A stretch of 64,000 nucleotides of DNA, from positions 124,001 to 188,000 of the forward strand of contig JAAZZQ010000088.1 of the NCBI GenBank assembly GCA_014239155.1, in the 5' to 3' direction. Below, in pieces: positions 40,770 to 63,938 of the stretch. Origin of the DNA: Lachnospiraceae bacterium (GTDB lineage Bacteria > Bacillota > Clostridia > Lachnospirales > Lachnospiraceae). Below the pieces are notes generated by a model, which ran no database searches, was not told the origin of the DNA, and saw only the letters and a program-made list of their open reading frames with translations. How positions within the stretch are numbered: position 1 is the stretch's first letter; every line of letters starts with the position of its first letter. The translations under genes and the position numbers were made by a program.

Positions 40770-40775
40770 AATGAT

Positions 40776-43062: not shown

Positions 43063-43101
43063 ATTCCAATATCTCCTTTATTCTAAAAATAATTTCCTTA
43101 C

Positions 43102-43141
43102 ATGAGAAAAGCCCCCGTCCGATCACGGAAGCCTTTCTCAT
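43102..43141 (-). other. 17-bp RNA hairpin between permease and GH36 genes
   Basis: Arms 43102-43118 and 43125-43141 pair over 17 positions, three of them G-U on the minus-strand RNA, around a 6-nt loop. The following sequence has only a weak T-run. It may stabilise or partly end the transport transcript before the enzyme genes. Confidence 0.75.
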
Positions 43142-43174
43142 TCCAGCCGCCACATAATGTAGTCACAAAATATT

Positions 43175-44056: not shown

Positions 44057-44069
44057 GATGCCATCCCCC

Positions 44070-45002: not shown

Positions 45003-45052
45003 ATAACCCCTCCATTTCTATACTTGTTTATTCCCTTCTATATTTACACAAT

Positions 45053-46762: not shown

Positions 46763-46930
46763 TTGATTTCCTCCAAATTCTGTAATTTACTAATGACTCA
46801 CTGAAAATAATAACAAACATGCATGTATTGCGTTACTTTAACAATAACAAAATTCTTATTTCTATCAAATATAAAATTTCCGAAAAACATATCAATTTTC
46901 CGTCTTTTTCTATATAAAATGATTCAAAAT

Positions 46931-46956
46931 ATAAAGAATAGTGATATATTCTTTAT
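46931..46956. promoter_or_regulatory. 10-bp inverted repeat in the divergent YesN/binding-protein region
   Basis: ATAAAGAATA (46931-46940) and TATTCTTTAT (46947-46956) are perfectly complementary with a 6-bp spacer. The site lies 38 bp before the YesN start codon and about 170 bp before the binding-protein start, in the only shared control region of the locus. It may be an operator or, less likely, a hairpin in the YesN leader. Confidence 0.5.
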
Positions 46957-46994
46957 AGATATACATACTTTTCCACAGATGAAGGAGTGAAATT

Positions 46995-50203: not shown

Positions 50204-50205
50204 AA

Positions 50206-51885
50206 ATGGTAAAAAAATGGTGGCACAATACAATCGGATATCAGATTTATCCCAAAAGTTTTCAAGACACGAACGGCGACGGAATCGGCGATTTAAAGGG
50301 TGTCACTGCACATCTGGACGACCTTGCCGATCTGGGAATCAATGTCATTTGGCTCTGCCCTATCAACAAATCACCAATGAAAGATCACGGGTACGATATT
50401 TCAGATTATGAAGAGATTGATCCCATGTTTGGTTGTAAGGACGACCTTGTAGAATTAATTCAAGAGGCCGACAAACACGGTATTAAGATCCTTATGGATC
50501 TGGTTGTAAACCATACATCTGTGGAACACCCGTGGTTTCAGAAAGCTCTGGCAGAACCTAACGGAAAGTATGGAAAATACTATATCATCAAGGAGGGAAA
50601 AGACGGGCGGGAACCCAACAACTGGCGCTCTATCTTTGGTGGCAGCGCATGGGAACAGATCGAAAATACCAATCTCTATTACCTCCATCTTTTTACCAAA
50701 TGGCAGCCGGATCTAAATTGGGAAAATCCCATTCTACGCGAAAAAATTTATGAAATGGTAAATGGATGGCTTGACCTTGGCATCAAAGGTTTTCGTATTG
50801 ATGCGATCAGCCATCTAAAAAAGGACTTTACATATCAGGACCTCCCTTCAGATGGCATAGATGGATACGTGGACGGATTTCCATACTTCAGCAATGTCAA
50901 CGGTATTGGCGACTTTCTGGCAGAACTACGGGAAAGAACATTTGCCCGCTATGATGCAATGACAATCGGTGAAGTTGACGAAGGACTGCCGCCTGATATT
51001 CTATTAGATTTTATTGGAGAAAACGGTTACTTCTCAACGATTTTTGACTTTTGCCATGCAAAGTTCCTTATCAATTCCGCTCAATGGAAAGGCAGCCTGA
51101 CAGAAATGATCGACGCGCTGAAAAAATGTCTATTTGCAAAACAAAATACTATCAACGGAAAAGGAATGTTGTGCAACTATCTGGAAAATCATGATCTTCC
51201 TCGCATTGTAGAACGATTTATACCAGAAGAAGAGATTGATTTCTACAGCAAATCCATGACAGGCAGCATCAACTTCTTCATGCCCGGAATCGTCTTTCTA
51301 TATCAAGGACAAGCAATTGGCATGATGAATTACAAGAAGGAAAGTATCACAGCATTTCAGGATCCTACGACATTTACACAATACGCTGAATACCTCAAAA
51401 ACGGGATGACTGAGGCGGAAGCGCTCGCTCAGATTAATCTAGAAACGCGGGAGCACGCAAGAACTCCTATGCAATGGACTAGCGAGCCGTATGCCGGATT
51501 TTCCAAATCAAAACCATGGTTTGCCGTCAATCCCAATTATAAACAGATAAATTATGAATCCCAGAAAAATGACCCAGATTCCCTGTACTCATTCTACAAA
51601 AAGATGGTAGCACTCAGAAAATCAGAGACATATCAGGATTTGTTTATTTATGGCGATATCGTCCCAATGTATGAAACAGAATCAGGCATTATTGGATATG
51701 AGCGCAGACTCAACAATAAAAGCGTACTGATTGTCATCAATGCAAAACCGAATGAAACAGTACTTCTATTATCTAGAAAAATAAAAGGTGTTCTGTTATC
51801 CAACTACAAAAAAATAATGCTGCAAGACGATGTGCTCCGATTACAAAGATTTCAGATACTTGTACTCGATTCAGATAAAAACTAA
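50206..51885 (+). CDS. GH13 alpha-glucosidase / oligo-1,6-glucosidase
   Basis: This cytoplasmic enzyme of 559 residues belongs to GH13 subfamily 31. The catalytic triad is complete: nucleophile Asp199 (GFRIDAISH), acid/base Glu256 (IGEVDEG) and Asp330 (ENHDLPR). QPDLNWENP and HGYDISDYEEIDPMFG are typical of oligo-1,6-glucosidase and dextran glucosidase. Position 200 after the nucleophile is Ala, where Val marks strict 1,6 specificity, so linkage preference is open. It likely frees glucose from isomaltose- or sucrose-type ends left by the alpha-galactosidases. It is coupled to the kinase gene (2-nt gap). Its last codons touch an insertion-sequence repeat. Confidence 0.93.
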   Translation: MVKKWWHNTIGYQIYPKSFQDTNGDGIGDLKGVTAHLDDLADLGINVIWLCPINKSPMKDHGYDISDYEEIDPMFGCKDDLVELIQEADKHGIKILMDLVVNHTSVEHPWFQKALAEPNGKYGKYYIIKEGKDGREPNNWRSIFGGSAWEQIENTNLYYLHLFTKWQPDLNWENPILREKIYEMVNGWLDLGIKGFRIDAISHLKKDFTYQDLPSDGIDGYVDGFPYFSNVNGIGDFLAELRERTFARYDAMTIGEVDEGLPPDILLDFIGENGYFSTIFDFCHAKFLINSAQWKGSLTEMIDALKKCLFAKQNTINGKGMLCNYLENHDLPRIVERFIPEEEIDFYSKSMTGSINFFMPGIVFLYQGQAIGMMNYKKESITAFQDPTTFTQYAEYLKNGMTEAEALAQINLETREHARTPMQWTSEPYAGFSKSKPWFAVNPNYKQINYESQKNDPDSLYSFYKKMVALRKSETYQDLFIYGDIVPMYETESGIIGYERRLNNKSVLIVINAKPNETVLLLSRKIKGVLLSNYKKIMLQDDVLRLQRFQILVLDSDKN

Positions 51886-51990
51886 AATTGCAGATAGTAT
51901 GCTTCGTACCAGCGCAAGCCAAATATAGACAGTGATGCAATAGTGTTAAACAGATAATCATTGCTCCAATTTCCAGAATGCTTACTGCCA
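51878..51990. repeat. insertion-sequence fragment, copy A
   Basis: It shares AAAATTG, TACCAGCGC-like and GTGATG blocks, in order, with copy B (52725-52862) but lacks about 30 bp in the middle. It begins at the very end of the GH13 gene, so the last codons of that gene may come from it. Confidence 0.5.
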
Positions 51991-52166
51991 GATGTACGAC
52001 ATAGTTTGGAGACACAAAAGGCAAAAATATGCCATGACTACCAAATTTTTCTTATGTTCTGGCAATACGCATTCAGTTATCATAAAATGACAAAGCCATT
52101 ACTCCAATTGTCAGAAGTCATAAAAACAGGAAAAACAATCTCTTTTATATTACAATTGACAAGTGC

Positions 52167-52207
52167 GTGAAAAATTTCTTTGGTAACCCATATCAGAAAT
52201 TTTTCAC
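52167..52207. repeat. 13-bp perfect inverted repeat in the IS graveyard
   Basis: GTGAAAAATTTCT (52167-52179) and AGAAATTTTTCAC (52195-52207) have a 15-bp spacer. It could be a leftover of an insertion-sequence end or a hairpin of a lost transcript. Confidence 0.55.
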
Positions 52208-52399
52208 ATATCGCTGTCATTCTGTGCTATATCTCCACAGATGTGTGCCTTTATTGCACCTTGCACAAAAGAGCAACTGCTACACTTCTGCTTTTTACTC
52301 TATTCAAATAACAATGGTTAGTACTCCCTTCCTGCTATCCTCATTAATACCGAACACAACGTAAACAACCAGTTGCCATATAACGCCATCTTCCCGGTG

Positions 52400-53049
52400 A
52401 AAAAATAGATTGCATCTATAAGCACAATCGGGTAAATTTCTGCTAAAGGACGATTGCGTCATTCTTCAATCTGTGAAAGAAACCTGTCTGTTACGACCGA
52501 CACCATACTCTCACTAACTTCAAATGCATAAATATTGTCTATAGTCTCAGATATTTGACGTGTGGTCATTCCTTTTGTATACTAGAGATGCTCTTGTCAT
52601 CAATAACAAAGATATTCTTCTTACATTTTAGGATTATCTGCAGTGCAAAAACTCTGACAATCATAAGGAACCTCCACTTCAAATTTACTATATTTATTAT
52701 GTATATATTTCAGTCTAGTGTTCTATCCAGTCAAAAATTAAAATTGTGGGTTGCATGTTTTGTGCCAGTGCTAACCGAACTTTTGATAGTGATGTGGTGG
52801 CACTGTCTAGAAATTTTAACAATGCAATGGTGCAGAACAGGTAGTTCATGGGTCTAATTTCTGACCGGATAGGGTACTCATTCATGTAATTTGTCTCTTC
52901 AAAACACTCATATTTCCCATAGCCAAGATAATCGTCCATCTCTGCCTCAAGCGTTTCCTGTATTGCACCTGAGAACAGATCTTTGAGGATATCTTGGATA
53001 TTCTCTGCAGTTTCAATGTTATACTCCTGCAGTAATCCTTGTATAAGGT
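52400..53049 (-). pseudogene. decayed IS256-family transposase
   Basis: On the minus strand, pieces of an IS256-type mutator transposase appear in the right order. They are an N-terminal part (52862-53049: IQDILKDLFSGAIQETLEAE and MDDYLGYGKYE), a FEVEVP patch near 52670-52687, GMTTRQISETIDNIYAFEVS near 52515-52575, and PLAEIYPIVLIDAIYF (52401-52449), which should carry the first catalytic Asp. Stops and frameshifts break it, and a segment related to copy A (52725-52862) interrupts it. The C-terminal third is missing. It is clearly inactive. Confidence 0.75.
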
Positions 53050-53194
53050 TTTACTTTCCTACAGTTATTGGTTTTGGGTTTTAATGTTCTTTTTTTGTTT
53101 ACCATATTTAAGACCTCTTATAATTTAGATTTTATCATAAAAGACATTATTCTTACAAAATATTTACAAACTTTTTTACAGTCTCAATAGCACA

Positions 53195-54163
53195 TTAAAT
53201 TGATTTACTATTAATTATTGATATCCTTTTTCCAATATTCTGTATTCTTTTAAACAATGTCCCTACAGTATCAAAATCTTTATATCTTACATTACAATAG
53301 TCTATCAAATAAGAAGATTCTTTTTCAATTTGTTCCAGTATATTATAGTAATCAGAAGGGGTTAAAAAATCATGTAAATTCCTTTTCTTGGACAACCCCT
53401 TTGTATGTTGATCTAATACATAACATATTTGCCCAAACAATTGATCGGAATACTCTTTATATTCATTTGCTGCAACGATATACTTTTTTTTCGCTAAAAG
53501 TTCCTCATCTGTCCAAATTCTATCACTTCTATTTTGCTGCAAAAATACTTTAAGATTTTGTGAGTGCTTTGCAATTATTCCACATACATATGCAGTTGCT
53601 TTACTATTTCCTCCAAACATGACATATTGTTTACCATCTTTTGAAGGCACCATAACGGGAAGAACATCTGCAACAATCTGAATAGAACGCTCAGGCATAT
53701 ACCAAAGTTCATCTGAATTGTCTAAAACAATTCCTTCTACCCCTATTACATTATCAAATTCTGCAGGATAACTTTTTTTTCCCGAATTTGCTTTTGAAGC
53801 AACAAGTATTTTCCCTTGACGCCTCAACTGCTGACATAGAAAATACATTTTTTCATTTTTACAATCCAAACAGGTAGAAAAACTCATACATATATAATCA
53901 ATTGACAATTGTAACAGATATTCTAAGGCATCATTAATAACAGAAATTTTACTGACGGCATTTTTATCCAAAACTTTTATAATAATAAATTCTGCATTTG
54001 GTTGTATTCTTGCAAGTATCTCAAAAATTGCTGTTCCATGACCATTATCATCCAAACATAACGCATCATTAGAAATAAAATTCTTAAACATAGTAATATT
54101 ATATTTTTCTCTTTGAGAACAATTACAACCCGAATCTAAAATAGCAATTTTATAACTCTTCAT
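53195..54163 (-). CDS. cytoplasmic subtilisin-like (S8) protease of the peptide island
   Basis: The 322-residue serine protease has no signal peptide or propeptide. The triad is Asp10 (AILDSG), His42 (NGHGTAI) and Ser187 (GGNSKATAYVCG), with Asn126 as a likely oxyanion residue. The serine motif reads GNSKAT where subtilases usually have GTSMAT. A helical extension of about 110 residues follows the domain. It is last in the island, about 226 nt beyond the precursor gene and after a hairpin. Similar S8 proteases remove leaders in some peptide pathways, and neither exporter of the island has a C39 peptidase domain, so leader removal inside the cell is the best guess. A regulatory protease is the alternative. 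Confidence 0.82.
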   Translation of the reverse strand: MKSYKIAILDSGCNCSQREKYNITMFKNFISNDALCLDDNGHGTAIFEILARIQPNAEFIIIKVLDKNAVSKISVINDALEYLLQLSIDYICMSFSTCLDCKNEKMYFLCQQLRRQGKILVASKANSGKKSYPAEFDNVIGVEGIVLDNSDELWYMPERSIQIVADVLPVMVPSKDGKQYVMFGGNSKATAYVCGIIAKHSQNLKVFLQQNRSDRIWTDEELLAKKKYIVAANEYKEYSDQLFGQICYVLDQHTKGLSKKRNLHDFLTPSDYYNILEQIEKESSYLIDYCNVRYKDFDTVGTLFKRIQNIGKRISIINSKSI

Positions 54164-54282
54164 ATATATTCTTCCTTTTATTCCTCTTCGCGTGTGTATA
54201 CAGCAGGGAAAAACTTTCCCCTACTCGCCGCGCAATTCCCATATTAGAGTATATTCTCTCTACATGGATCTCGTACATATAA

Positions 54283-54308
54283 AGAATGGGGACATTTGTC
54301 CCCATTCT
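54283..54308 (-). terminator. hairpin after the precursor peptide gene
   Basis: A perfect 11-bp stem, AGAATGGGGAC (54283-54293) and GTCCCCATTCT (54298-54308), has a 4-nt loop. On the minus strand it is followed by TTTATATG, a modest T-run. It lies about 80 nt after the precursor stop and before the protease. It likely stabilises the precursor message and lets only part of transcription through to the protease. Confidence 0.8.
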
Positions 54309-54389
54309 ATAATAACAGTAAGTAGAATCCTTCTATAAACTTCTAATTAATATGTAACGATAGCTTGAAACTTATTGGTATAAACTTTA

Positions 54390-54563
54390 TTACCACAATA
54401 TTGTTAAATTCGGCGTAAACTGTACTCTACAGCCACTTGTGCTTGGATTTGCTGTCACCCACTCAGCACAATCATCTGAACAACCCTGTCCCATTACCTC
54501 AGTTGTTTCAACCTTGTCCTCGATCTTCCTAACTTCTAACATTTCACTCTGCTTTGTCATCAT
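54390..54563 (-). CDS. three-cysteine RiPP precursor peptide (candidate)
   Basis: This 57-codon gene was found by translating the gap. The start ATG is at 54563 (a second ATG is at 54560) after AGAGGTG, and TAA ends at 54390. Residues 1-24 are a charged leader (EVRKIEDKVETTEV at 10-23). From residue 25 comes MGQGCSDDC, then a Thr/Asn/Ser/Pro-rich stretch, and a hydrophobic end TPNLTILW. Cysteines are at 28, 32 and 45, and Trp at 35 and 57. It lies 18 nt after a radical SAM gene, the normal setting for a sactipeptide or ranthipeptide substrate. Size, position, leader and cysteines all fit, but I know no named family for it. Confidence 0.75.
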   Translation of the reverse strand: MMTKQSEMLEVRKIEDKVETTEVMGQGCSDDCAEWVTANPSTSGCRVQFTPNLTILW

Positions 54564-54581
54564 ATGCACCTCTTTCTAACT

Positions 54582-55601
54582 CTACTTACTATTATTTTCC
54601 CAAAAATTTTGCTTTACGTGCTCTATCGCACAAACTACAGGTATAGGTTCATAATAATCACCCTGTACCATCTTATTAATTATCTTACATCTGGAACAAA
54701 GACATGCTGAATATACTGTACATCCTTGACACTTATGTATCGGGGAAGTATTAATTTTCTCAAGTCTTTGTATATTATCTTCCAATAAGGTTCCTTTTAC
54801 TACATTCCCTATCAGTAATTCCCTTTCACCCACCCCATAACTGCACGGATACAAATCTCCATTTGGGAGCACATGGAAATTTGTCTTCCCCCCTTGGCAA
54901 AATCCTTTATTTTGAAATCGATCTTCCAAAATAGAAATTCTCACCGACTTTAGTTCATCAATATTTTCCCTATAATACTTTCTTACTATTTTCATCTGTT
55001 CTAATAAAACTTGCATTTTTTTAACAGACCAATTAGGTGAAAAATAATCAGGCGCAGAAACAATATTTTTAAAACCACAATTAATTAGATGAATAATATT
55101 ATGACCCAATCTTTCTACTGTTTCTGAAGTGTAAGTCATCCTAACTCGTATATCAGATTTTTGTTTTAATAACTCTGGAACTATTTTCATAATTCGCGTA
55201 TAGGTTCCATTTCCATTAGAATCAACTCTATTTTTATCATTTGTTAGCATATCTCCATCTAAACTTAATGAAACTCCATAATTCATTTTTTCACAAAGAT
55301 AGTCTACTATTTGTTTTGTTAGCAAAAGTCCATTTGTTGTAATTCCAAAGAGAGGTTTTAAAGAACTCTTTTCTAATTCTGAAATAATATACTGAATCAT
55401 TGAAAAATTAATTAACGGTTCCCCGCCATGAAATTCTACTATTAATGGTTCTTGATATTTTGGTTTATAGACAGTTTTAATAAATTTAATAACACTATCA
55501 GCAACATCTTGTGTCATATTTTCACATTGCTTTTCTAATCCTTCATAACAATATCTACACATTAAATTACATCCTGTTGTAACCCATATTCCAATAAGCA
55601 T
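54582..55601 (-). CDS. radical SAM/SPASM peptide-modifying enzyme (2)
   Basis: The 339-residue iron-sulfur enzyme begins almost directly with the radical SAM domain. Its CX3CX2C motif binds the SAM cluster at Cys11, Cys15 and Cys18 (TGCNLMCRYCYE), and HGGEPL near 59 is the SAM-binding glycine motif. A SPASM domain with many cysteines (CQGG, PCSYG, CQGC, ACLCSRC, VVCAIEH) from about residue 230 should hold auxiliary clusters. It has no leader-binding domain of its own, so it may rely on the first enzyme's PqqD-like domain. It is 4 nt after the first radical SAM gene and 18 nt before the precursor. Confidence 0.92.
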   Translation of the reverse strand: MLIGIWVTTGCNLMCRYCYEGLEKQCENMTQDVADSVIKFIKTVYKPKYQEPLIVEFHGGEPLINFSMIQYIISELEKSSLKPLFGITTNGLLLTKQIVDYLCEKMNYGVSLSLDGDMLTNDKNRVDSNGNGTYTRIMKIVPELLKQKSDIRVRMTYTSETVERLGHNIIHLINCGFKNIVSAPDYFSPNWSVKKMQVLLEQMKIVRKYYRENIDELKSVRISILEDRFQNKGFCQGGKTNFHVLPNGDLYPCSYGVGERELLIGNVVKGTLLEDNIQRLEKINTSPIHKCQGCTVYSACLCSRCKIINKMVQGDYYEPIPVVCAIEHVKQNFWENNSK

Positions 55602-55605
55602 ATCC

Positions 55606-56868
55606 CTACTCTTCTTCCCATATTATATTCTGCAGCTCTTTCTTTCTCTTCTCACAATGGATATCTTTACTGATTATTCCCTTTTGCAGCATATCAATAT
55701 GATGCAGGCAACTCCAACAGAATAAATTTACATCGCAATCCTTACATTCCGAATAGTTTTGAGGATACAGTTGAAGAAAATTATTATATGCGTTTGTTTT
55801 TTTAACTTCTCCATCTGTAAAAAAATGTAATAATTCTTTCTGTTCGAGAATATTTCCTAAAAAATATTTTTTGTCAAATAAAATTGGACAAGGAAACATA
55901 TTTCCAAAATAATCAATATACATTGTCCTTTTAAGTGCTCCACAGGAACACACTTTCATGCCTGAACTATTGGTCCGAATCTGTTCCTTTCCATCCATAG
56001 TTTCTTTATTTTTATTATTCCTATTTACTTCCAATTCAGCCCTATTTGCTTCCCCTCTTCCTATTGGACTAAAGGTTCTAAGCATAGGCTTTGTTCCCAA
56101 CTGATTATTCAGTTCAAAAAATTGTTGTATATGTGGTTGGTTTTGTTTCGTAACCACCATAGATAACGAAATTTTTTTAAATCCTGCTTCATGAAGCATT
56201 TTAACAGAATCCATTACTTTAGAAAAAACACCTTTTCCGCGTATTCTGGCACATGTCACCTCATCAACACCATCAATACTTATATCAATTGAATCAACCA
56301 ACTTTACTATTATGGATATATTTTCTTTGGTAAACAATGTACCATTTGTCATAATTCCAATATGCCCTTTAAACCGTTTCCTAGTATACTCTAATAAATC
56401 AACAAAACCTTCTTTTAATAATGGCTCCCCACCCGTAAAAATAATCTGTTCTGGGCTTAAAGTAATAATTTTTTCTATTATCCTTTCACACTCTTCCAAA
56501 GTTAACACATCTGGTACATTACCAGCCTTTACACTGCAATGTTTACACTTTAAATTACATCTCTCTGTAATGGCAAATGTGATATACTTAGGTATCTCTT
56601 TCTGCTTCTGTTTATTTTGTGTTATAACCTCTATCTCAAGTAACTGATTTAGAAGCTGCTTCATATATATTTTATCACTCTCATCTTTCAGAGCACTTAT
56701 AAAATCTCGGACTGTATAGTGCTTCTGTATCACTGTTTGAATAAGCTGATAACATTCTTGACTTATTTTTATCCATTCGCCGGAATTTGTATTTCCTAGA
56801 ATAACCCTTTTTTTATGCGAAAGAATCCCTGTGTGCTCTGTCAATTTAATCGACATTTCTTCGTTCAT
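55606..56868 (-). CDS. radical SAM/SPASM peptide-modifying enzyme (1) with PqqD-like domain
   Basis: The 420-residue enzyme has a PqqD-like leader-recognition domain at about 1-88 (ISQECYQLIQTVIQKHYTVR) and a radical SAM domain from about 92, with Cys104, Cys108 and Cys111 (ERCNLKCKHC) and TGGEPLLKEG near 143. A C-terminal SPASM domain (CSCGAL, PCPILF, CKDCDVNLFCWSC) from about 305 should bind two extra iron-sulfur clusters. This order is that of AlbA/SkfB-type sactisynthases and ranthipeptide synthases, which link a cysteine sulfur to a carbon of another residue. The target is inferred to be the three-cysteine peptide 1 kb downstream. It starts 19 nt after the ABC permease gene. Confidence 0.93.
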   Translation of the reverse strand: MNEEMSIKLTEHTGILSHKKRVILGNTNSGEWIKISQECYQLIQTVIQKHYTVRDFISALKDESDKIYMKQLLNQLLEIEVITQNKQKQKEIPKYITFAITERCNLKCKHCSVKAGNVPDVLTLEECERIIEKIITLSPEQIIFTGGEPLLKEGFVDLLEYTRKRFKGHIGIMTNGTLFTKENISIIVKLVDSIDISIDGVDEVTCARIRGKGVFSKVMDSVKMLHEAGFKKISLSMVVTKQNQPHIQQFFELNNQLGTKPMLRTFSPIGRGEANRAELEVNRNNKNKETMDGKEQIRTNSSGMKVCSCGALKRTMYIDYFGNMFPCPILFDKKYFLGNILEQKELLHFFTDGEVKKTNAYNNFLQLYPQNYSECKDCDVNLFCWSCLHHIDMLQKGIISKDIHCEKRKKELQNIIWEEE

Positions 56869-56887
56869 AATCTCTTCCCCTAACGCT

Positions 56888-59440
56888 TCATTCTGTTCTT
56901 AACCTAACAATAATACTCTCTTTCTCTAAACCTCTGCATAAAAAGTAAGGAACCATTATAGCAATAATAATAAATATAGGACTGAGAACCATTATTGGCA
57001 GCAATGTGAACCGAAATGTAAAAAACCAAATGCTATGAGATACTATTTTTACTATTGTGAGTGATACAACTGTCCCAAAAAGTATAGATAACAAAATTGT
57101 AGCAATTGCATATATCAATCCTTCTGTAATAAGCATCGACTTTAACTGCTGGTCTGTCATTCCAACACTTTGCAACATAGCAAATTCTCCTTTTCTAGTA
57201 AGTACACTTGTAAACATCGCATTAAAAAAGTTTACAATACCTATAAAGGCAATAATCCCTCCAAAAACACTCCCAATAATCACAAACGTATTTTTTACTC
57301 CTGAAAATTCATCCAAATATTTTTTTTTGGAATCAAAATTCAAGAGGCTATTTGATTTAACATAATATTCTAACTTTTCCTGCATTTGTTGTATATTTTT
57401 TTCTCCTTCTTTACAATTAAATATATAAGAAACTGTTACAGGATTTTTTATATATTCAAGAAATACGTCTGAAGGAATATATATATTTGTATTACCAGTA
57501 TGTCTATCTGTATATGTGTTTTCTTTTATCAAAACCTTTGCTATTACCTCAAATTCACGGACAGCGGTTTCGTGAAGATTTATCTCATCTGTTACATCAT
57601 AAAAATGAATCTTAATTTTGTCACCAACCTGAATAGGAATGTTTGCTTCTGCATTTCCAAATCCACTATCTGAAATTCCTATAATAATACCTGCACCAGC
57701 TTTTAACTTATCAAAATCCAATACTCCTTCTAACAAATCCATAGATTGCAGTAAATAATCATCTGCTCCATATAAGTCAATCATTGGATATCCATTAACA
57801 TCCCTATTCGGTGAGGGCAATAAATCACTTTCGGCAAAAAACTGTTCTTGAAGCACTTTTGTCCTTATCAGCCTTCCCCCTTCACCAAACTCTGGCTGAC
57901 TTTTTACATAATCGATATAACTTTGTGGAATTCTATATTCAGATTTATCAAACGCATAATTAAAATATTCTGCCGTGGAAATAATAAAATCCTTATCTAA
58001 AAAGTTATTTACATATGCTTCTTCATCAAATCCATTTACAAATGTAAATACAGAATTGAACAAAACTGCTGCCAATCCTAAGGAAAAAACCACAAGCAAT
58101 GTCCTTTTTCTATTTCTCCCCAGATTTGCAATTGCCATACGATAAATTTTTCCACCGTTTACAGATTGTTTTTCTTTCTTTAATTTTTTGCTCTTTGTAT
58201 CTACAAATCGTAAAGCTTCCAATGGCGATACCTTAGAAGCAACCTTTCTCGGTATACTGACACTAATATAAATCGTTATGAACGAAAAAAATGCTGCGCC
58301 CAAGAAAATAATTGGTATTACTGTTATTTGCACACTGTCTGCAGTTTTGTATGTTGTTGATTGCATCAGCGCTGGAACCAGCAAAACCCCTAAAAAATAC
58401 CCCAAAATCAAACCAATTGGAATACCGATTGCTGCTAATCTATTCGCCTGCTTTTGCAATAGTTGTTTTAGTTGCCCCTCTGTTGTTCCAAGTGTTTTAA
58501 GCTGTCCAAAAAAGCGAATATCCTGCATCACTGATATCTGAAAAATATTGTAAATTATTAAATATCCTGTAACAAATATAAGTAGGGTTGCCCCAATCAA
58601 TCCCATTATCACACTCGAATTGTCCAAGGATGCTGTAAATAAATATGCTGGAGAAATTCTGGCAATTACAAAATTTGACGCATTCTTATCTGCTCCCATA
58701 CCTTCCCACACATATCCAGATTCCTCAAGCATCATTGTAATCTGTTCTGACAATTTCTTATCATCTTTAAAATTGATATAAACTACTACACTTCCTGAGT
58801 AATTCATATCTATATCATAGGTATATGGAATATCATTTTGGATCGCATTTAAATAGTCTTTTGAAACAATAATTCTATGAACATCTGAAAATTCCTCCGC
58901 ATTCCAATATCCAGCCAAAATAAACTCCTCTGTTCTGAATTTGTCTTTCACACGGTAATTTAACTTAATTGATGTACCAATCTTTTTTTCAATTCCAAGC
59001 CCTTCTAAAAGTTTGGAATCCGTAATAATCTCCTGTTGCGTCTGTGGGAAATGACCATCTTCCAGCTTGTATCCAGCAAATTCTATCGCAGTGTTATCCA
59101 TATACCACATTTCGGACTTTAAACCACGCAAAGAGTCCTCCAATATTTCATCCGCAACCAGCTTTGTATATGCAATTTTATCTATTCTTGGATTATCCTT
59201 TACCTTCTTATAAACTTCATCCGTTATATTACTTAAGACAATCTGACCATCCCCACCTGCTTTTCGGATATTTTCCTGCTTTACTGTATTTAGCAGCTCA
59301 AATCCCATAGTAAAAATCGTCGTAAATAAAACTGTAGTCAAAACAATTGCTACTATCGCGATAAAATTTCTATTTCTGTTTGCCCGATATGTTTTATTTG
59401 CTATCTTGTTGATCACTGGTCTATTGTTATTACTGATCAT
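56888..59440 (-). CDS. FtsX/MacB-type ABC permease, two-repeat form
   Basis: The 850-residue membrane protein is built of two FtsX-like repeats. Membrane helices lie near 25-48, 285-315, 340-370 and 380-405 in the first half and near 455-475, 730-755, 780-810 and 815-840 in the second, with large extracellular loops between them. It pairs with the ATPase gene just before it. Such systems move or expel peptides and lipid-targeting antibiotics, so immunity, or peptide release, is likely. The ATG at 59440 (GGGGAGGG) is preferred to a start 14 codons upstream that would overlap the ATPase gene. The radical SAM gene follows by 19 nt. Confidence 0.92.
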   Translation of the reverse strand: MISNNNRPVINKIANKTYRANRNRNFIAIVAIVLTTVLFTTIFTMGFELLNTVKQENIRKAGGDGQIVLSNITDEVYKKVKDNPRIDKIAYTKLVADEILEDSLRGLKSEMWYMDNTAIEFAGYKLEDGHFPQTQQEIITDSKLLEGLGIEKKIGTSIKLNYRVKDKFRTEEFILAGYWNAEEFSDVHRIIVSKDYLNAIQNDIPYTYDIDMNYSGSVVVYINFKDDKKLSEQITMMLEESGYVWEGMGADKNASNFVIARISPAYLFTASLDNSSVIMGLIGATLLIFVTGYLIIYNIFQISVMQDIRFFGQLKTLGTTEGQLKQLLQKQANRLAAIGIPIGLILGYFLGVLLVPALMQSTTYKTADSVQITVIPIIFLGAAFFSFITIYISVSIPRKVASKVSPLEALRFVDTKSKKLKKEKQSVNGGKIYRMAIANLGRNRKRTLLVVFSLGLAAVLFNSVFTFVNGFDEEAYVNNFLDKDFIISTAEYFNYAFDKSEYRIPQSYIDYVKSQPEFGEGGRLIRTKVLQEQFFAESDLLPSPNRDVNGYPMIDLYGADDYLLQSMDLLEGVLDFDKLKAGAGIIIGISDSGFGNAEANIPIQVGDKIKIHFYDVTDEINLHETAVREFEVIAKVLIKENTYTDRHTGNTNIYIPSDVFLEYIKNPVTVSYIFNCKEGEKNIQQMQEKLEYYVKSNSLLNFDSKKKYLDEFSGVKNTFVIIGSVFGGIIAFIGIVNFFNAMFTSVLTRKGEFAMLQSVGMTDQQLKSMLITEGLIYAIATILLSILFGTVVSLTIVKIVSHSIWFFTFRFTLLPIMVLSPIFIIIAIMVPYFLCRGLEKESIIVRLRTE

Positions 59441-59453
59441 TGCTGCCCTCCCC

Positions 59454-60125
59454 TTAATGCTCCACAATTTTACCATCCTCAATATAAATAATGCGATCTG
59501 CCATCTGTGCTATTTGCATATTGTGTGTTATCATAATTAAGGTCTGGTTCAGTATATGAACAGATTCCACCATTAAACCTAATACTTCTTGACTTGTATT
59601 ACTATCTAAATTTCCTGTAGGTTCATCAGCTAAAATAATGGAAGGATTACTTGCTAATGCTCTAGCAATGGCAACTCTCTGTTGCTGCCCACCAGATAAT
59701 TGCGATGGCAATGCAAATTTTTTTTCAGATAAATGCATAATTTTCAATATTTTTGTTATATATTCCTGATTTGGTTGTCGTCCATCCAACTCAAGTGGTA
59801 AAATTATATTTTCATAAGAATTTAAAACAGGCACTAAATTATAATTTTGAAAAATAAATCCAATCTGCCTTCTTCTAAAAACCGTTAGCTCATCCCTATT
59901 TAAAGTTCCAAGCTCACTCCCTTCTACAATGACTTTCCCACTTGTTGGATTATCCAATCCTCCCAGCATATGTAACAGTGTAGATTTTCCACTTCCAGAA
60001 GCACCCACCACTGCCACAAACTCACCTTTTTTTACTGTTAAATCAATTCCGTCTAGTGCTTTTGTTAGAGTGTTTCCCTCTCCATAATATTTTTTTAACT
60101 CTCTTGTCACTAAAATATCTTCCAT
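59454..60125 (-). CDS. MacB/LolD-type ABC ATPase
   Basis: The 223-residue nucleotide-binding subunit has a Walker A motif GASGSGKST near 42-50, signature LSGGQQQRVAIARAL near 140-154 and Walker B with ILADEPTGNLD near 163-173. It is of the LolD/MacB family, which powers FtsX-type permeases, here the 850-residue one 13 nt downstream. As first gene of the ABC-radical SAM-precursor operon it has its own promoter region, which includes the 35-bp palindromic site at 60177-60211. Peptide immunity is the likely task. Confidence 0.94.
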   Translation of the reverse strand: MEDILVTRELKKYYGEGNTLTKALDGIDLTVKKGEFVAVVGASGSGKSTLLHMLGGLDNPTSGKVIVEGSELGTLNRDELTVFRRRQIGFIFQNYNLVPVLNSYENIILPLELDGRQPNQEYITKILKIMHLSEKKFALPSQLSGGQQQRVAIARALASNPSIILADEPTGNLDSNTSQEVLGLMVESVHILNQTLIMITHNMQIAQMADRIIYIEDGKIVEH

Positions 60126-60176
60126 AGTTTCCCTCTCTCTTTTTTATATCTATAGTGTAAAACAAAAATGTCACCT

Positions 60177-60211
60177 AAACCTCTCCAAAAAATATCATTT
60201 TTGTGAGATTT
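60177..60211 (-). promoter_or_regulatory. 35-bp palindromic operator, copy 1
   Basis: Read on the minus strand it is AAATCTCAC, a 17-bp spacer starting AAAAAT, then GAGAGGTTT. It lies about 52 nt before the ATPase start codon. The sequence after it (GTGACA, then a TATAGAT -10 candidate) aligns with that after copy 2. The RNA could also form a 13-bp hairpin (60171-60217), so a terminator or attenuator role is the alternative. It is the only matching site between the kinase and ABC genes. Confidence 0.7.
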
Positions 60212-60220
60212 AAGTGATTT

Positions 60221-61249
60221 TCAATAATTTGACAAATAAATAGAGAATTTACTTCCTTTGCCGCATACAGATTGTACGCTAATAAACCCTTTTTCCATAC
60301 TGAGTATCTGTCTTGCTAAATATAAACCAATACCAACTCCAGCCTTATCCCTCACGTTTTTTCCTCTATAAAATCTTTGAAATATTTTTGGTATTTCCTC
60401 CTGCGGAATCCCTATTCCTGTGTCCGAAATCTCTATCAGTGTATATATTTCATATCGTTTCACTGAAACAGTAATATTCCCATGTTCTGGCGTATATTTC
60501 ACAGCGTTATCCAATACATTTTCCAGAACTTCGTCTGTCCATTTCCGATCATGCAAAGCAGTGAGTTCTTCCTCACATTCCACATAAATTGTAATATCTT
60601 TTTCTGCGGCTTTCATTGCAACACTTCCCAACACTCCAGCCAACGTTTCCTGAACAGAGAGCACTTGAGGTGACAATAAAAATATTCCCACCTCTAACCT
60701 AGACATTTTTAATAAATTATCCATCAGAAAATCCAACTTATCAATCTGCTCTGATAAAATTTTTAAATAACAGGTTCTCTTTTCAACTGATAAATCTTTT
60801 TTCTGAAGTGCTGTAGTATAAAGTACTGCGTTTGCAATTGGCGTCTTAACTTGATGTGCTATATCTGATACTAAACTCTGTAGAATTTCCTTGTCCTGTT
60901 TTGCTTCTCCTACCACCCTCTCTATATGATCACACAATCTTGCCAATTGCATTTGGCTTTTGCTTAATAAAGAATCCTGATATCTGAAAAATTCCTGCAT
61001 TTTACCGTCCTGTATTATTTGAGTAATATTTTTTTCCAAAATATCAGAATATGTTTCAATTTCTCGAATCAACTGCCTGCTAATCAAACCATTTAATAAA
61101 ATAGTTAATATACATAGTCCATATAAAATAAAATTCACTTTGCTTTGTAGAATAAAGGATATTCCCCCTGACACTATAATAAATACACCATTGCCATAAT
61201 TCCTTATTCTTATTAATGTATCTGTTGAAATCCTATTTTTAGTCCCCAC
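60221..61249 (-). CDS. sensor histidine kinase of the peptide island
   Basis: The 342-residue kinase has two close N-terminal membrane helices (about 19-34 and 37-55) and hardly any extracellular loop. The HisKA box is VSDIAHQVKTPIAN near residue 133, the N-box ENVLDNAVKYTP near 242 and the G1 box DTGIGI near 274. The short loop fits the intramembrane-sensing kinases that detect peptides through a neighbouring ABC permease, as with BceS, though the permease here is not BceB. It overlaps the regulator gene by 11 nt. Likely job: to sense the island's own peptide or a related antibiotic. Confidence 0.92.
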   Translation of the reverse strand: MGTKNRISTDTLIRIRNYGNGVFIIVSGGISFILQSKVNFILYGLCILTILLNGLISRQLIREIETYSDILEKNITQIIQDGKMQEFFRYQDSLLSKSQMQLARLCDHIERVVGEAKQDKEILQSLVSDIAHQVKTPIANAVLYTTALQKKDLSVEKRTCYLKILSEQIDKLDFLMDNLLKMSRLEVGIFLLSPQVLSVQETLAGVLGSVAMKAAEKDITIYVECEEELTALHDRKWTDEVLENVLDNAVKYTPEHGNITVSVKRYEIYTLIEISDTGIGIPQEEIPKIFQRFYRGKNVRDKAGVGIGLYLARQILSMEKGFISVQSVCGKGSKFSIYLSNY

Positions 61250-61940
61250 TATTTCCCTCTCCTATCCATGTATATCCCATTCCATAGATTGTTTTTATAT
61301 ATCGATGCTCCGAATCCTCAAGTTTACTTCTCAATCTATTAATGCTCACTGTCAACGCATGTTCATCTACATAATTTTCGCTTTCGTTATCCCATAATTT
61401 TTCTAAAAACATACGTCTTGTTAAAACTAAATTTCTATTATTAATTAACAATTTTAATAGTTTAAACTCAAAAGAAGTCATTACTATTTTTTGATCTTCT
61501 TTAATAATTTGTAAACTTTCAAAATCAATGGTAATAAATCCGTCTGTCCAAATATCCTTTTTAATATCTTTTCCATAGCGTTGCAACACTACTGCAATAC
61601 GGCATTGAAGTACAGAGACACTAAAAGGTTTTTTAATATAGTCATCTGCCCCTGAAGCAAAACCTCTTACTTCATCTATTTCCATATCTCTTGCTGTCAA
61701 AAATAAAATTGGAATACTTTTTATACTTTTCATTTTCTGACAAACTTCAAATCCATCCATATCTGGTAAATTTATGTCTAACAAAATCAAATCAATTTTT
61801 AATCTTTTTAGTTTATCAATCGCTTCTAATCCTGTTTGGACGCTCTCAATCTCATACCCACAATTCTCTAAATTAACCGCAAGCCCACTTGACAATACTG
61901 GGTCATCCTCAACAATTAAGATTTTATTCATTTCAAACAC
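61239..61940 (-). CDS. OmpR-family response regulator of the peptide island
   Basis: The 233-residue regulator has a receiver domain with phospho-acceptor Asp near 56 (LILLDINLPDMDG), the KKPF lysine near 106 and a winged-helix DNA-binding domain at 135-228. GTG at 61940 (AGGA 6 nt before it) or ATG at 61931 could be the start; the spacing favours GTG. The inferred target is the palindromic site found before both transport operons of the island. The kinase gene follows with an 11-nt overlap. Confidence 0.93.
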   Translation of the reverse strand: MFEMNKILIVEDDPVLSSGLAVNLENCGYEIESVQTGLEAIDKLKRLKIDLILLDINLPDMDGFEVCQKMKSIKSIPILFLTARDMEIDEVRGFASGADDYIKKPFSVSVLQCRIAVVLQRYGKDIKKDIWTDGFITIDFESLQIIKEDQKIVMTSFEFKLLKLLINNRNLVLTRRMFLEKLWDNESENYVDEHALTVSINRLRSKLEDSEHRYIKTIYGMGYTWIGEGNSGD

Positions 61941-61967
61941 TCACTTTCCTAGAATTCTTTGCTGTCA

Positions 61968-61976
61968 ATTATAACA
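61968..61976 (-). promoter_or_regulatory. extended -10 promoter for the island regulator
   Basis: On the minus strand TGTTATAAT gives a consensus TATAAT with the TG extension and no good -35 box. It lies about 28 nt before the regulator start codon. No palindromic operator is nearby, so the two-component genes appear to be expressed on their own. Confidence 0.55.
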
Positions 61977-62004
61977 AATCTTAACTTTTCTGGATAGATT
62001 CAAG

Positions 62005-63636
62005 TTAAAATGTAATAATCTTATCGCAGACTGTCAATAATTCTCTTCGATGTGTAACAATAATAACAGTTTTATTTGTCAAATATTCTCTCACTATATT
62101 ACAAAAATTTCTCTCACTTTCCAAATCCATAGCTGCAGTTGGTTCGTCTAAAATATATATACTTTTATTTTGTAAAAGACCACGTATTAATGCTAATTTT
62201 TGTGCCTCTCCTCCGGACAAATTTCCCCTGTTTTCAGTAAGCTCTGTCTCTAATCCATCTGGAAACTTTTCCAATGATACTCCTAATTTCTCCATAAACT
62301 CAAACATCTTATTTTCTTTCTCTTTTGAATCAATTTCCATAATATCTCTTAGTGTTCCATAGGGCAAAAAGCATTCTTGAGGGATAACTGTTACATTTCT
62401 TTTTATGCTCTCATACGTAATATTGTCTATTGAAATTCCATCAAAATAAAGCATTCCCGATTGGGGTATACATAATTTAGAAAGCAACTTTATTAATGTA
62501 GATTTGCCACTGCCATTTTCACCAATAATCCCAATTGTTGCCTTTTCTGGAATTTCCATTGTTAAATTTTGCAATATCCATTTTTCTTTGTACTTAAAAC
62601 TTACATCATCAAAATTTATCTCTCCTTTTGTGCATATCCAATCTATTTTTCCAGCTAATATAGAATCTTCATTTTCTAAAATTTCAAGAATCTTTTCTAT
62701 CATTGGCTTTGTATTTTTTATATTAATATATTCTGTTCCCAATACCACAATTGGTCCATAAAGTCTCTGTATATAAATAGTCAAAGAAAATAATACCCCA
62801 ATACTCAATCTTCCCTTTAAAACTTCAATCGCCCCTACTACCAATACTGCAAGTATTCCAAAAACATTAAATGACATACCAATTAACTGTGCAATCGTTA
62901 CCCTCTTCGTCTGTAAAATAAATTGCTGTATTACATTTCTATTCTTTGTATCAAAACGCCTTCTTTCCAATGCAGTCAGATCTGCCATTTGAATTGTAGC
63001 AATATGATTGAGGGTTTCATTTATAATACTCGAAAGTTCTCCCATCTGTAATCTTAATACAGACATACCATCCTGAATCTTATCTCCACATTTTTTTTGT
63101 ATACTTGCAAATAAAAACGCCATAAGCAGAATAATCAATCCTAATATTGGGTTAATAATTAAAAACACTATCGTAATTCCAACAGCAACAAAAAAATTGA
63201 TAATTAAATTACTTATTGTACCAGTCAATAAATTTTGTATACTATCAATATCATTCTCTAGCACTCTTAATACATCGCCAATTTGATAATTCATCCAAAA
63301 TTTTAGATTTCTCTCTAATAATTTTTCAAACATAGTACGTTTGATGTTATATACTATTTGTTGTGCCAACTTATAAAAACTAACCTTCTGTAAATACTGA
63401 AATAAAATCATTAGTAATCCACATACTAACATTGCACTGCAATAAAACAATATCTTTTCTATATCGCAACTTTTAATTCCCTCATCAATAATCAAACTAA
63501 TAAACCCCGGGAAAGCAAGGGAAAATATGGTATATAATACCATAAAAATAAGGCACTTTATTTGCTTAAATATGTATAACTTTATTGGCATCTGAAGTAT
63601 AGTATTGATTTTTTTAATATAATTTTTCATTTTCAT
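62005..63636 (-). CDS. ABC exporter, fused membrane and ATPase domains
   Basis: The 543-residue half-transporter has a six-helix membrane domain (about 20-310) followed by an ATPase domain with Walker A GENGSGKST near 360, signature NLSGGEAQKLALIRG near 455 and Walker B YILDEPTAAMD near 475. It has the layout of peptide and lipid exporters but no N-terminal C39 peptidase, so it would export an already processed peptide. It works as a homodimer. It has its own control region with a second copy of the 35-bp palindrome. The gap to the regulator gene is 64 nt. Confidence 0.92.
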   Translation of the reverse strand: MKMKNYIKKINTILQMPIKLYIFKQIKCLIFMVLYTIFSLAFPGFISLIIDEGIKSCDIEKILFYCSAMLVCGLLMILFQYLQKVSFYKLAQQIVYNIKRTMFEKLLERNLKFWMNYQIGDVLRVLENDIDSIQNLLTGTISNLIINFFVAVGITIVFLIINPILGLIILLMAFLFASIQKKCGDKIQDGMSVLRLQMGELSSIINETLNHIATIQMADLTALERRRFDTKNRNVIQQFILQTKRVTIAQLIGMSFNVFGILAVLVVGAIEVLKGRLSIGVLFSLTIYIQRLYGPIVVLGTEYINIKNTKPMIEKILEILENEDSILAGKIDWICTKGEINFDDVSFKYKEKWILQNLTMEIPEKATIGIIGENGSGKSTLIKLLSKLCIPQSGMLYFDGISIDNITYESIKRNVTVIPQECFLPYGTLRDIMEIDSKEKENKMFEFMEKLGVSLEKFPDGLETELTENRGNLSGGEAQKLALIRGLLQNKSIYILDEPTAAMDLESERNFCNIVREYLTNKTVIIVTHRRELLTVCDKIITF

Positions 63637-63792
63637 TCCTTAAAAGTATTTATATTTGTATCGTTAATCTATTTAAAAATGTCTTTAATTTGGATACATT
63701 AATTTTTATGTACAAAAAGATAATCACAAAATTAGTATAAACACAACATTATAATCCCATTTTATTAATACAATACCATATAATTATCACTA

Positions 63793-63827
63793 AAATCTCT
63801 CTTAATTATAATATTTTTGAGAGATTT
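63793..63827 (-). promoter_or_regulatory. 35-bp palindromic operator, copy 2
   Basis: AAATCTCTC and GAGAGATTT form a perfect 9-bp inverted repeat with a 17-bp spacer. Read on the minus strand it matches copy 1 at 28 of 38 aligned positions, and AGTGA follows in this copy where copy 1 has GGTGA. It lies about 157 nt before the exporter start codon. Confidence 0.7.
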
Positions 63828-63848
63828 TTAAATTGTCTCAAAAATATT
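63810..63848. repeat. second inverted repeat overlapping operator copy 2
   Basis: AATATTTTTGAGA (63810-63822) and TCTCAAAAATATT (63836-63848) are perfectly complementary over 13 bp with a 13-bp spacer. The first arm shares its GAGA with one half of the operator, so two hairpins, or two protein-bound forms, exclude each other. Confidence 0.65.
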
Positions 63849-63897
63849 AACCATATATTAATAAAAAGCACATCACTCAAAAAAATTTCTAAATTAC

Positions 63898-63938
63898 AAA
63901 AAAAGAACCCTTAACCAAATATGTTAGGGTTCTTTTTT
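63898..63938. terminator. bidirectional terminator at the right edge of the island
   Basis: AAAAGAACCCTTAAC (63901-63915) pairs with GTTAGGGTTCTTTT (63923-63936), one bulged T, with an A-run before and a T-run after. It would end transcription from either side, so it marks a clean border for the exporter unit. Confidence 0.8.

What the first reader, a model, noticed from the sequence alone, without database searches (positions are those of the whole stretch)
53195..63938. Self-contained radical-SAM peptide system with sensor, exporter, protease and precursor
Seen: a 57-residue three-cysteine peptide directly after two radical SAM/SPASM enzymes, preceded by an ABC pair, a two-component system and a separate exporter, and followed by an S8 protease. 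Known: such sets make sactipeptides or ranthipeptides, some of them antibacterial. Inference: a peptide antibiotic or signal with its own immunity and autoregulation. I do not recognise the precursor from any named class.
Basis: partly seen in the sequence, partly recalled or inferred. Interest (0 to 1): 0.88.

Follow-up and report, generated by a model that had tools for sequence, protein, structure and literature searches.

The report
Two-enzyme cross-linked peptide gene cluster
A gut-type bacterium carries an intact nine-gene set that probably makes, trims, exports and resists a small sulfur-bridged peptide, and similar sets with a shared Cys-x-x-Asp-Cys motif turn up in scattered relatives and on a few plasmids.

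Summary
In detail: nine intact same-strand genes (exporter, response regulator, kinase, ABC ATPase, FtsX permease, two radical SAM/SPASM enzymes, a 57-residue three-Cys peptide, an S8 protease). I found 18 further loci with both radical SAM enzymes: in the own family, in four other families of the class, and on plasmids of Paraclostridium sordellii and Clostridioides difficile. All 19 pair loci inspected encode a short peptide with C-x-x-D-C plus at least one more Cys (for 12 of them the peptide was picked by this motif or by eye). Protease and exporter are in 18 of 19 (one contig ends early); the ABC/FtsX pair in 13 of 19. The small enzymes form one group in a tree (89/79 support), and in one genome the two enzymes are fused. 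No NCBIfam, Pfam or PHROG model matched the precursors tested; both enzymes and the protease fall well below every curated cut-off. The protease starts at its catalytic Asp and is nearest to QhpE, a cytoplasmic leader protease. Best reading: a thioether RiPP, probably a bacteriocin, cross-linked by two dissimilar enzymes working together, trimmed in the cytoplasm, then exported. Chemistry and activity are inferred, not shown. New variant of a known kind.

The parts
62005..63636 (-). ABC exporter, membrane + ATPase, 543 aa, no C39 peptidase
   Evidence: Pfam ABC_membrane 4e-33, ABC_tran 2e-29, no peptidase domain listed
61239..61940 (-). response regulator (receiver + Trans_reg_C), 233 aa
   Evidence: Pfam Response_reg 2e-28, Trans_reg_C 3e-20
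60221..61249 (-). sensor histidine kinase, 342 aa
   Evidence: Pfam HATPase_c 4e-25, HisKA 3e-9
59454..60125 (-). ABC ATPase of the presumed sensing/immunity pair, 223 aa
   Evidence: Pfam ABC_tran 8e-34; NCBIfam LolD 2e-67, below cut-off
56888..59482 (-). FtsX-type permease, two FtsX stretches, up to 864 aa (start codon uncertain)
   Evidence: Pfam FtsX 3e-20, two stretches
55606..56868 (-). rSAM1: N-terminal RRE-like region + radical SAM + SPASM, 420 aa
   Evidence: Pfam Radical_SAM 3e-29, SPASM 6e-6; profile aligns to CteB 5wgg over 21-417; NCBIfam StsB 2e-38 over 8-401, below cut-off
54582..55601 (-). rSAM2: radical SAM + SPASM without N-terminal domain, 339 aa
   Evidence: Pfam Radical_SAM 3e-11, SPASM 5e-5; NCBIfam PapB 7e-57, 193 of 340 bits needed; profile to CteB 6e-63
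54390..54563 (-). precursor peptide, 57 aa; conserved C28, D31, C32 and third Cys C45
   Evidence: alignments A3 and A8
54283..54308 (-). hairpin between precursor and protease genes (11-bp stem, 4-nt loop), possible attenuator
   Evidence: kept in L043
53195..54163 (-). QhpE-like S8 protease, 322 aa, no signal peptide, weakly acyl-carrier-like C-terminus
   Evidence: NCBIfam QhpE 4e-29, 101.6 of 165 bits needed; Pfam S8 1.5e-9; D10, H42, S187 invariant in 12 members; tail

Best explanation
A RiPP operon of a family for which I found no name. Shown by sequence: a 57-aa precursor; a pair of dissimilar radical SAM/SPASM enzymes; a cytoplasmic-type S8 protease; a peptidase-less exporter; an ABC/FtsX pair and a two-component system. 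Inferred: the precursor has a leader of about 27 residues ending in GQG and a 30-residue core CSDDCAEWVTANPSTSGCRVQFTPNLTILW; the N-terminal domain of rSAM1 holds the leader for both enzymes, which work as a complex; they turn the three Cys into intramolecular thioethers (up to -6 Da), one probably a Cys-Asp side-chain link within the C-x-x-D-C turn made by the PapB-like rSAM2, the others made by rSAM1; the QhpE-like protease then removes the leader inside the cell, near GQG; the exporter releases the product; the ABC pair and kinase/regulator sense it and protect the producer. The product is most likely a narrow-spectrum antibacterial peptide.
For: A C-x-x-D-C peptide accompanies the enzyme pair in 19 of 19 inspected pair loci. 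Six precursors found by BLASTP with the window's peptide, without using the motif (L079, L083, L118, L122, L143, L152), and the 88% identical L043, all have C-x-x-D-C and a downstream Cys. rSAM1 and rSAM2 are one 753-aa frame in L045 and 14 bases apart in its tree neighbour L120. The 20 rSAM2 rows with such peptides are one side of a branch, 89/79, in 86% of 200 bootstrap trees. Nearest solved relative of both enzymes is CteB. QhpE cleaves the leader of Cys-Asp/Glu cross-linked QhpC in the cytoplasm before ABC export (PMC7876137, passages). PapB makes Cys-Asp thioethers (PMC9413430, abstract). TrnC and TrnD act as a complex, TrnC with a canonical RRE (PMC12093266, passages). Scattered distribution, plasmid copies (3 of 72,556 records), two beside agr genes, and a decayed copy in a near relative fit a bacteriocin.
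Against: No chemistry or activity was measured. L083 keeps precursor, rSAM2, protease, exporter, sensor and ABC pair but no rSAM1 was found in its 18.9 kb. In L144, L145, L150 and L151 the extra Cys lies upstream of C-x-x-D-C; L081, L082 and L150 have more than three Cys. For 12 of 19 pair loci the precursor was picked by the motif or by eye, so its invariance there is partly circular; a leader-only profile clearly recovered only 2 of 11 test loci, and one background ORF outranked the third. The ABC/FtsX pair was seen in only 13 of 19 pair loci and a response-regulator match in 8 of 19 stretches, so the sensing/immunity part is not constant. Spacing C-x2-D is not PapB's C-x3-D; a review says PapB mostly fails on C-x2-D (PMC8172795, passages) while the 2022 abstract says n = 0-6 is accepted. 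The second-best curated match of rSAM1 is the mycofactocin maturase, not a thioether enzyme. No Pfam RRE match in 11 rSAM1 members and AlphaFold models were too poor to use (pLDDT 36 and 42).
Confidence: 0.7

Rival explanations
1. The modified peptide is mainly a signal: the two-component system is its receptor and the ABC pair a sensing transporter, so the operon is an autoinducing pheromone system without killing activity.
For: Response regulator and kinase sit inside the operon; two plasmid relatives lie beside agr autoinducer genes.
Against: The regulators are not a constant part: a response-regulator match at 1e-4 in 8 of 19 pair stretches, none in L118, L120, L121, L122, L143-L146 or L152, while peptide and enzyme pair stay. 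FtsX/ABC pairs of this kind are often resistance genes (established knowledge, not tested).
Confidence: 0.25
2. The enzymes do something other than thioether formation, for example C-C or ether cross-links to C-terminal aromatic residues, or epimerisation, and the Cys form disulfides or other links.
For: Many radical SAM/SPASM maturases match these enzymes, cyclophane-forming ones and the mycofactocin maturase among them; many precursors end in or near aromatic residues.
Against: Best curated and solved relatives are thioether-forming: PapB and SCIFF maturase for rSAM2, StsB for rSAM1, CteB for both; the invariant residues of the aligned precursors are two Cys and an Asp.
Confidence: 0.15
3. 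The peptide is a redox or metal-binding cofactor or carrier rather than a secreted effector.
For: C-x-x-D-C could bind metal; QhpE, the nearest curated protease, and QhpD mature an enzyme subunit.
Against: An exporter recurs in 18 of 19 pair loci and I saw no partner enzyme recurring; cores vary widely outside the motif. Genes unrelated to the window's nine were not systematically compared.
Confidence: 0.05

Closest known systems
CLI_3235 / CcpM Cys-rich peptide system (TIGR04065, TIGR04066, TIGR04068, TIGR04069)
   Same: Short Cys-rich precursor, radical SAM/SPASM maturase, QhpE-like S8 protease, ABC exporter, FtsX-type ABC pair and an acyl-carrier-related protein; a copy lies on the same contig as one of the new loci (L082 3262-11154; its TIGR04065 precursor is above cut-off, the maturase 493.9 of 500 bits).
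   Different: One maturase there, two dissimilar ones here; its precursor has no C-x-x-D-C; the acyl-carrier-like part is a separate protein there, possibly the protease C-terminus here; the window's rSAM2 scores 106.5 of the 500 bits needed for CcpM.
PapB / freyrasin ranthipeptides (NF047865)
   Same: rSAM2 is closest to PapB among curated models (193.2 bits); both substrates place Asp near Cys.
   Different: Below the PapB cut-off of 340; freyrasin has six C-x3-D motifs (abstract), here one C-x-x-D-C, a further Cys and a second enzyme.
SCIFF peptides and maturase (TIGR03974; CteB, PDB 5wgg)
   Same: CteB is the best solved relative of both rSAM1 and rSAM2.
   Different: Three, not six, Cys; two enzymes; 125.7 of 425 bits; separate group in the tree from ten enzymes that I presume to be SCIFF maturases by length and ubiquity.
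Two-enzyme sactipeptides: thuricin CD (TrnC/TrnD)
   Same: Two radical SAM/SPASM enzymes per operon that act as one complex (PMC12093266, passages); three thioethers per peptide.
   Different: There TrnC has a canonical and TrnD a non-canonical RRE region and the two are called functionally similar; here rSAM2 has no N-terminal domain at all, and a QhpE-like protease belongs to the set.
QhpD/QhpE/QhpF maturation of quinohemoprotein amine dehydrogenase
   Same: Same order of work proposed: radical SAM cross-linking, cytoplasmic subtilisin-like leader removal, ABC export; QhpE is the nearest curated match of the protease.
   Different: QhpC is an enzyme subunit; the protease scores 101.6 of 165 bits and has about 100 further residues at its C-terminus.

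Membership tests
PapB-type ranthipeptide | maturase above curated NF047865 cut-off (340 bits) | tested here: not met
   rSAM2 193.2 bits
PapB-type ranthipeptide | thioether to a non-alpha carbon of Asp/Glu | not testable with these tools
   needs MS/NMR
SCIFF peptide system | maturase above TIGR03974 cut-off (425 bits) and six-Cys precursor | tested here: not met
   rSAM2 125.7 bits; precursor has three Cys
CcpM / CLI_3235 system | TIGR04068 maturase and TIGR04065 precursor | tested here: not met
   rSAM2 106.5 of 500 bits; no TIGR04065 hit for 10 precursors at E up to 1 or 3 plasmid ones at 0.1
CcpM / CLI_3235 system | acyl-carrier-related protein (TIGR04069) | tested here: inconclusive
   protease C-termini against three own-genome ACPs: hhalign E 2.5e-4, probability 43%; TIGR00517 E 0.0037 in L118, no ACP hit in L122 or L078; PF00550 in 2 of 12 members, best E 0.05
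Sactipeptide (StsB/AlbA type) | maturase above NF045574 or NF012164 cut-off | tested here: not met
   rSAM1 132.3 of 625 and 76.9 of 850 bits
Sactipeptide | sulfur-to-alpha-carbon links | not testable with these tools
   needs MS/NMR
QhpE protease | above NF049966 cut-off (165 bits) | tested here: not met
   101.6 bits; catalytic Asp, His, Ser present
RiPP in general | short precursor recurring beside dedicated maturases | tested here: met
   19 of 19 pair loci, 7 of them (window included) without use of the motif
RiPP in general | RRE domain binding the leader | tested here: inconclusive
   rSAM1 profile aligns with CteB from position 21 and rSAM1 with StsB from residue 8; no Pfam RRE/PqqD match in 11 members; structure model too poor

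The most novel reading that the evidence does not exclude
The two enzymes form one obligate machine with divided labour: rSAM1 supplies the leader-binding domain and makes one kind of sulfur link, while the domain-less rSAM2 makes a Cys-Asp side-chain link in the C-x-x-D-C turn, so that one small peptide carries two different classes of thioether (sacti-type and ranthi-type); I met no such mixture in the papers seen, though no search was made for it as such. The C. difficile plasmid copy, beside an extra murJ gene, would further suggest the lipid II flippase step as a target.
Probability: 0.25. Interest if true: 0.8.

Novelty: new variant of a known kind. Interest (0 to 1): 0.6.

Why it matters
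It outlines a coherent RiPP family with an easy signature (two dissimilar radical SAM enzymes, a C-x-x-D-C peptide, a QhpE-like protease) spread thinly over the class and present on plasmids, where the deposited annotation says only radical SAM protein, hypothetical protein and S8 family serine peptidase. A naturally fused two-enzyme version offers a tractable way to ask how two radical enzymes share one substrate. If antibacterial, the plasmid copies in P. sordellii and C. difficile point to competition among gut clostridia.

Tried and rejected
Precursor alone as query: of 299 family genomes (own included) only the own one matched meaningfully; two weak matches (E 0.002 and 0.005) were not followed. 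No plasmid match at E 0.1, although a plasmid precursor exists (L152, found later), so such nulls say little.

Protease as query: 46 of 299 genomes matched at 1e-6. Of the loci it brought, I annotated four (L044-L047): only L045 is a radical SAM locus; L044 has protease and ABC genes near a contig start but no radical SAM match in the 15 kb read. L048-L053 and L055 were fetched but used only as background. The protease is not specific.

Lower rSAM2-profile hits (about 1e-76 to 1e-64): L123-L128 and L147-L149 (9 loci) carry a related enzyme of 364-456 aa, no rSAM1 match beside it, and no convincing precursor, though three of them hold a C-x-x-D-C ORF that I count as chance (L123, L125, L128). 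L127 even has an S8-like protease and ABC genes beside its enzyme, so protease plus such an enzyme does not by itself mean this family. L119 is a distant three-radical-SAM relative with two C-x-x-D-C peptides, left out of the 19. G686 and the hits of 450-540 aa were not inspected as loci.

First tree used wrong frames for some of the long rows and was discarded; the repeat picks frames by the radical SAM motif and trims to the core. PapB, QhpD and CteB themselves were not in the tree. The ten rows named SCIFF there were not scanned against NCBIfam.

Phages: no rSAM2 match in 50,697 records at 1e-40.

Literature: nine searches of an open-access library; only listed papers were seen (40 of 129, 32 of 34, 15 of 29), and none of the titles or abstracts listed describes this set. 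Passages only were read of PMC7876137, PMC12093266, PMC10885120, PMC9576775 and PMC8172795, and the abstract and section list of PMC9413430. Many subscription papers are not held, so absence from print is not shown.
Full report
OBSERVATION. Gaps between FtsX, rSAM1, rSAM2 and the precursor are 4-19 bases. Pfam and NCBIfam confirm the domains. Precursors matched nothing: the window's in NCBIfam and Pfam at 0.01, 10 precursors in NCBIfam at E up to 1, 4 in PHROGs at 0.1, 3 plasmid ones in NCBIfam at 0.1.

A NAMED INTACT RELATIVE. The one scan of genome contigs, with rSAM2, returned two loci, both 92% identical. L043 (BLMC01000040.1, titled Lachnospiraceae bacterium IMSAGC_011) has all nine genes in the same order. 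Its peptide core differs from the window's at two of 30 positions (S to N, R to K). The shared block runs from the exporter's start to the protease's end (L043 1952-11326 and 11487-12470 against window 63640-54279 and 54181-53199; 89.7% and 88.7%) and stops abruptly upstream of the exporter, apart from a 63-base match. L042 (CASJPF010000060.1) is a decayed copy: the first part of rSAM1 is replaced, at the contig's end, by an ORF that I recognise by eye as TnpB-like (no search), and a deletion joins the first 34 or so residues of the precursor to the middle of the protease.

THE FAMILY. In one search (60 genomes: 36 of the own genus, own included, and 24 of the same order) pair loci were found in 7 of the 36 genus members, one of them the decayed copy. 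In one search (397 genomes drawn from the family, rSAM2 profile) 358 matched at 1e-45; the six genomes with hits at 8.3e-85 or better all have pair loci on inspection, and most lower rows listed are frames of 450-540 residues that I take for SCIFF-type maturases without having scanned them. In one search (391 genomes of the class) 9 matched at 1e-72; the five at 2.9e-102 or better (the own genome and four from four other families) have pair loci. In one search, 3 of 72,556 plasmid records matched at 1e-40, two of Paraclostridium sordellii and one of Clostridioides difficile, and all three are pair loci. In one search, 0 of 50,697 phage records matched. The genus is thus richer than the family at large, and the rest is scattered.

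Pair loci inspected, rSAM1 and rSAM2 both present: the window, L043, L045, L078, L079, L080, L081, L082, L118, L120, L121, L122, L143, L144, L145, L146, L150, L151, L152 = 19 (L076 and L077 are the same contigs as L042 and L043 and are not counted). L045 was first met through the protease search and again. Left out: decayed L042, L083 (rSAM2 without rSAM1) and the distant L119. A short ORF with C-x-x-D-C and at least three Cys lies in 19 of 19; the S8 protease in 18 of 19 and the exporter in 18 of 19 (L079's contig ends; in L081 and L082 the exporter is two half-size genes); a relative of the ABC ATPase (42% identity or more) with an FtsX match in 13 of 19 (not in L078, L122, L143, L144, L146, L152); a response-regulator match at 1e-4 in 8 of 19 stretches. 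So peptide, enzyme pair, protease and exporter are the constant part; sensing and immunity genes come and go.

IS THE MOTIF REAL? For 12 of the 19 the precursor was picked by the motif or by eye, which is partly circular. Checks: six were found by BLASTP with the window's peptide alone (L079 1e-7, L083 2e-6, L118 7e-9, L122 3e-10, L143 6e-10, L152 3e-6), and with the 88% identical L043 all seven carry C-x-x-D-C and a downstream Cys. In the plasmid records the peptides are annotated genes, named hypothetical protein. Background: 7 such short ORFs on both strands of 412,625 bases (23 other loci and the first 53 kb of the window), against at least one in 17 of 18 foreground stretches by the same script (16 of the pair loci, L083 and L119); the eighteenth, L122, was missed because its frame opens at an earlier start codon. 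A leader-only profile from seven members (window, L043, L079, L083, L118, L122, L143) put the motif-bearing ORFs of L144 (3.9e-6) and L145 (0.007) first among 2,947 short ORFs; then came a background ORF (0.5), and the other nine of 11 foreground loci scored above 1 or not at all. So the leader is not one conserved block. In the alignment of 18 precursors from 17 loci (16 pair loci and L083) only C28, D31 and C32 are invariant. Where the extra Cys is downstream it lies 6 to 20 residues away; in L144, L145, L150 and L151 it is upstream.

THE ENZYMES. rSAM1 has an N-terminal stretch of about 95 residues before the radical SAM domain; its profile aligns with CteB (5wgg) from position 21 and it matches StsB from residue 8, which suggests an RRE; Pfam shows none and the AlphaFold model is too poor to use. 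rSAM2 starts directly at the radical SAM domain. Both have CX3CX2C and conserved SPASM cysteines. Nearest curated names are StsB, then the mycofactocin maturase, for rSAM1 and PapB for rSAM2, each far below its cut-off. In a tree of 40 enzymes the 20 rSAM2 rows, L083 included, form one side of a branch (89/79; 86% of 200 bootstrap trees), away from ten presumed SCIFF maturases, CcpM and nine others; PapB and QhpD were not available for it. The fused rSAM1-rSAM2 of L045 (753 aa), beside the split pair of its tree neighbour L120, is direct evidence that the two belong together. The precedent is thuricin CD, where TrnC and TrnD act as a complex and TrnC has the canonical RRE (PMC12093266, passages).

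THE PROTEASE. It begins MKSYKIAILDSG with the catalytic Asp at residue 10, so there is no room for a signal or propeptide; Asp, His and Ser are invariant in 12 members. The best curated match is QhpE and the two best solved ones are intracellular serine proteases. QhpE removes the 28-residue leader of cross-linked QhpC before export, as a single-turnover cytoplasmic enzyme (PMC7876137, passages). The window's exporter has no peptidase domain, which fits leader removal before export. The last ~100 residues look weakly like an acyl carrier protein whose Ser is not kept (hhalign of 10 members with three ACPs of the own genome, E 2.5e-4, probability 43%; L118's protease hits TIGR00517 at 0.0037 but L122's and L078's hit no ACP model; PF00550 in 2 of 12, best 0.05). 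This is suggestive only. It is of interest because the CLI_3235/CcpM system, present in L082 near the new one, has a separate acyl-carrier-related protein (TIGR04069) and a QhpE-like protease.

A HAIRPIN BETWEEN PRECURSOR AND PROTEASE. The window has an 11-bp hairpin at 54283-54308 (z -3.05 for the surrounding 130 bases, 1 of 200 shuffles as stable), kept in L043. My scan, which allowed G-T pairs and had no shuffled control, found stems of 9-18 bp in 6 of 8 scanned gaps where the protease follows the precursor (not L143, L152), one of 20 bp in L150 where a radical SAM gene follows, and none in 4 gaps where a permease or ABC gene follows; L080 and L122 were not scanned. A brake that lowers protease relative to precursor is a plausible reading.

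SETTING. LytTR and agr genes lie beside the two P. sordellii copies. The C. difficile copy is on a plasmid typed as mobilizable and has a divergent gene for a full MurJ beside rSAM1 (TIGR01695, 340.7 bits, cut-off 235.55). Scattered distribution, plasmids and a decayed copy fit a bacteriocin better than a household function, but no activity was tested.

VERDICT. The operon is a real, intact RiPP locus of a family I could not name, a new variant of the thioether RiPPs. How the sulfur links run and what the peptide does are inferred.

Noticed in passing
L152 5895-7418 (C. difficile plasmid p_TW11, NZ_CP045225.1): A full-length MurJ gene lies divergently next to rSAM1 on a plasmid typed as mobilizable; a possible immunity gene or hint at the target.
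   Followed up: partly
L150 3193-5992 and L151 1629-4447 (P. sordellii plasmids): agr-type genes (LytTR regulator, kinase, AgrB, cyclic lactone peptide) upstream of the loci, and a second rSAM1-like enzyme in each locus.
   Followed up: no
L082 3262-8795 and 11404-17711: A CcpM/CLI_3235-type system and a member of the new family with two precursors lie within 15 kb of each other.
   Followed up: partly
L119 6344-13106 (G404): A more distant kind: three radical SAM genes, protease, exporter and two peptides with an upstream Cys plus C-x-x-D-C; the same genome also has a regular pair locus, L118.
   Followed up: no
L083 9352-18935 (G320): Full set but no rSAM1 found nearby; a natural test of whether rSAM2 alone suffices, though the same genome has rSAM1 genes in two other loci.
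   Followed up: partly
L127 3454-9985 (G115): A radical SAM enzyme related to rSAM2 beside an S8-like protease (608 aa) and two ABC genes, without rSAM1 or a clear C-x-x-D-C peptide.
   Followed up: no
window 38152-53198: About 15 kb present in the window but absent at the same place in L043, where the locus directly borders the region matching window 38151-29799.
   Followed up: no
L044 5420-6379 (G131): A QhpE-like protease with ABC genes near a contig start but no radical SAM match in the 15 kb read.
   Followed up: no
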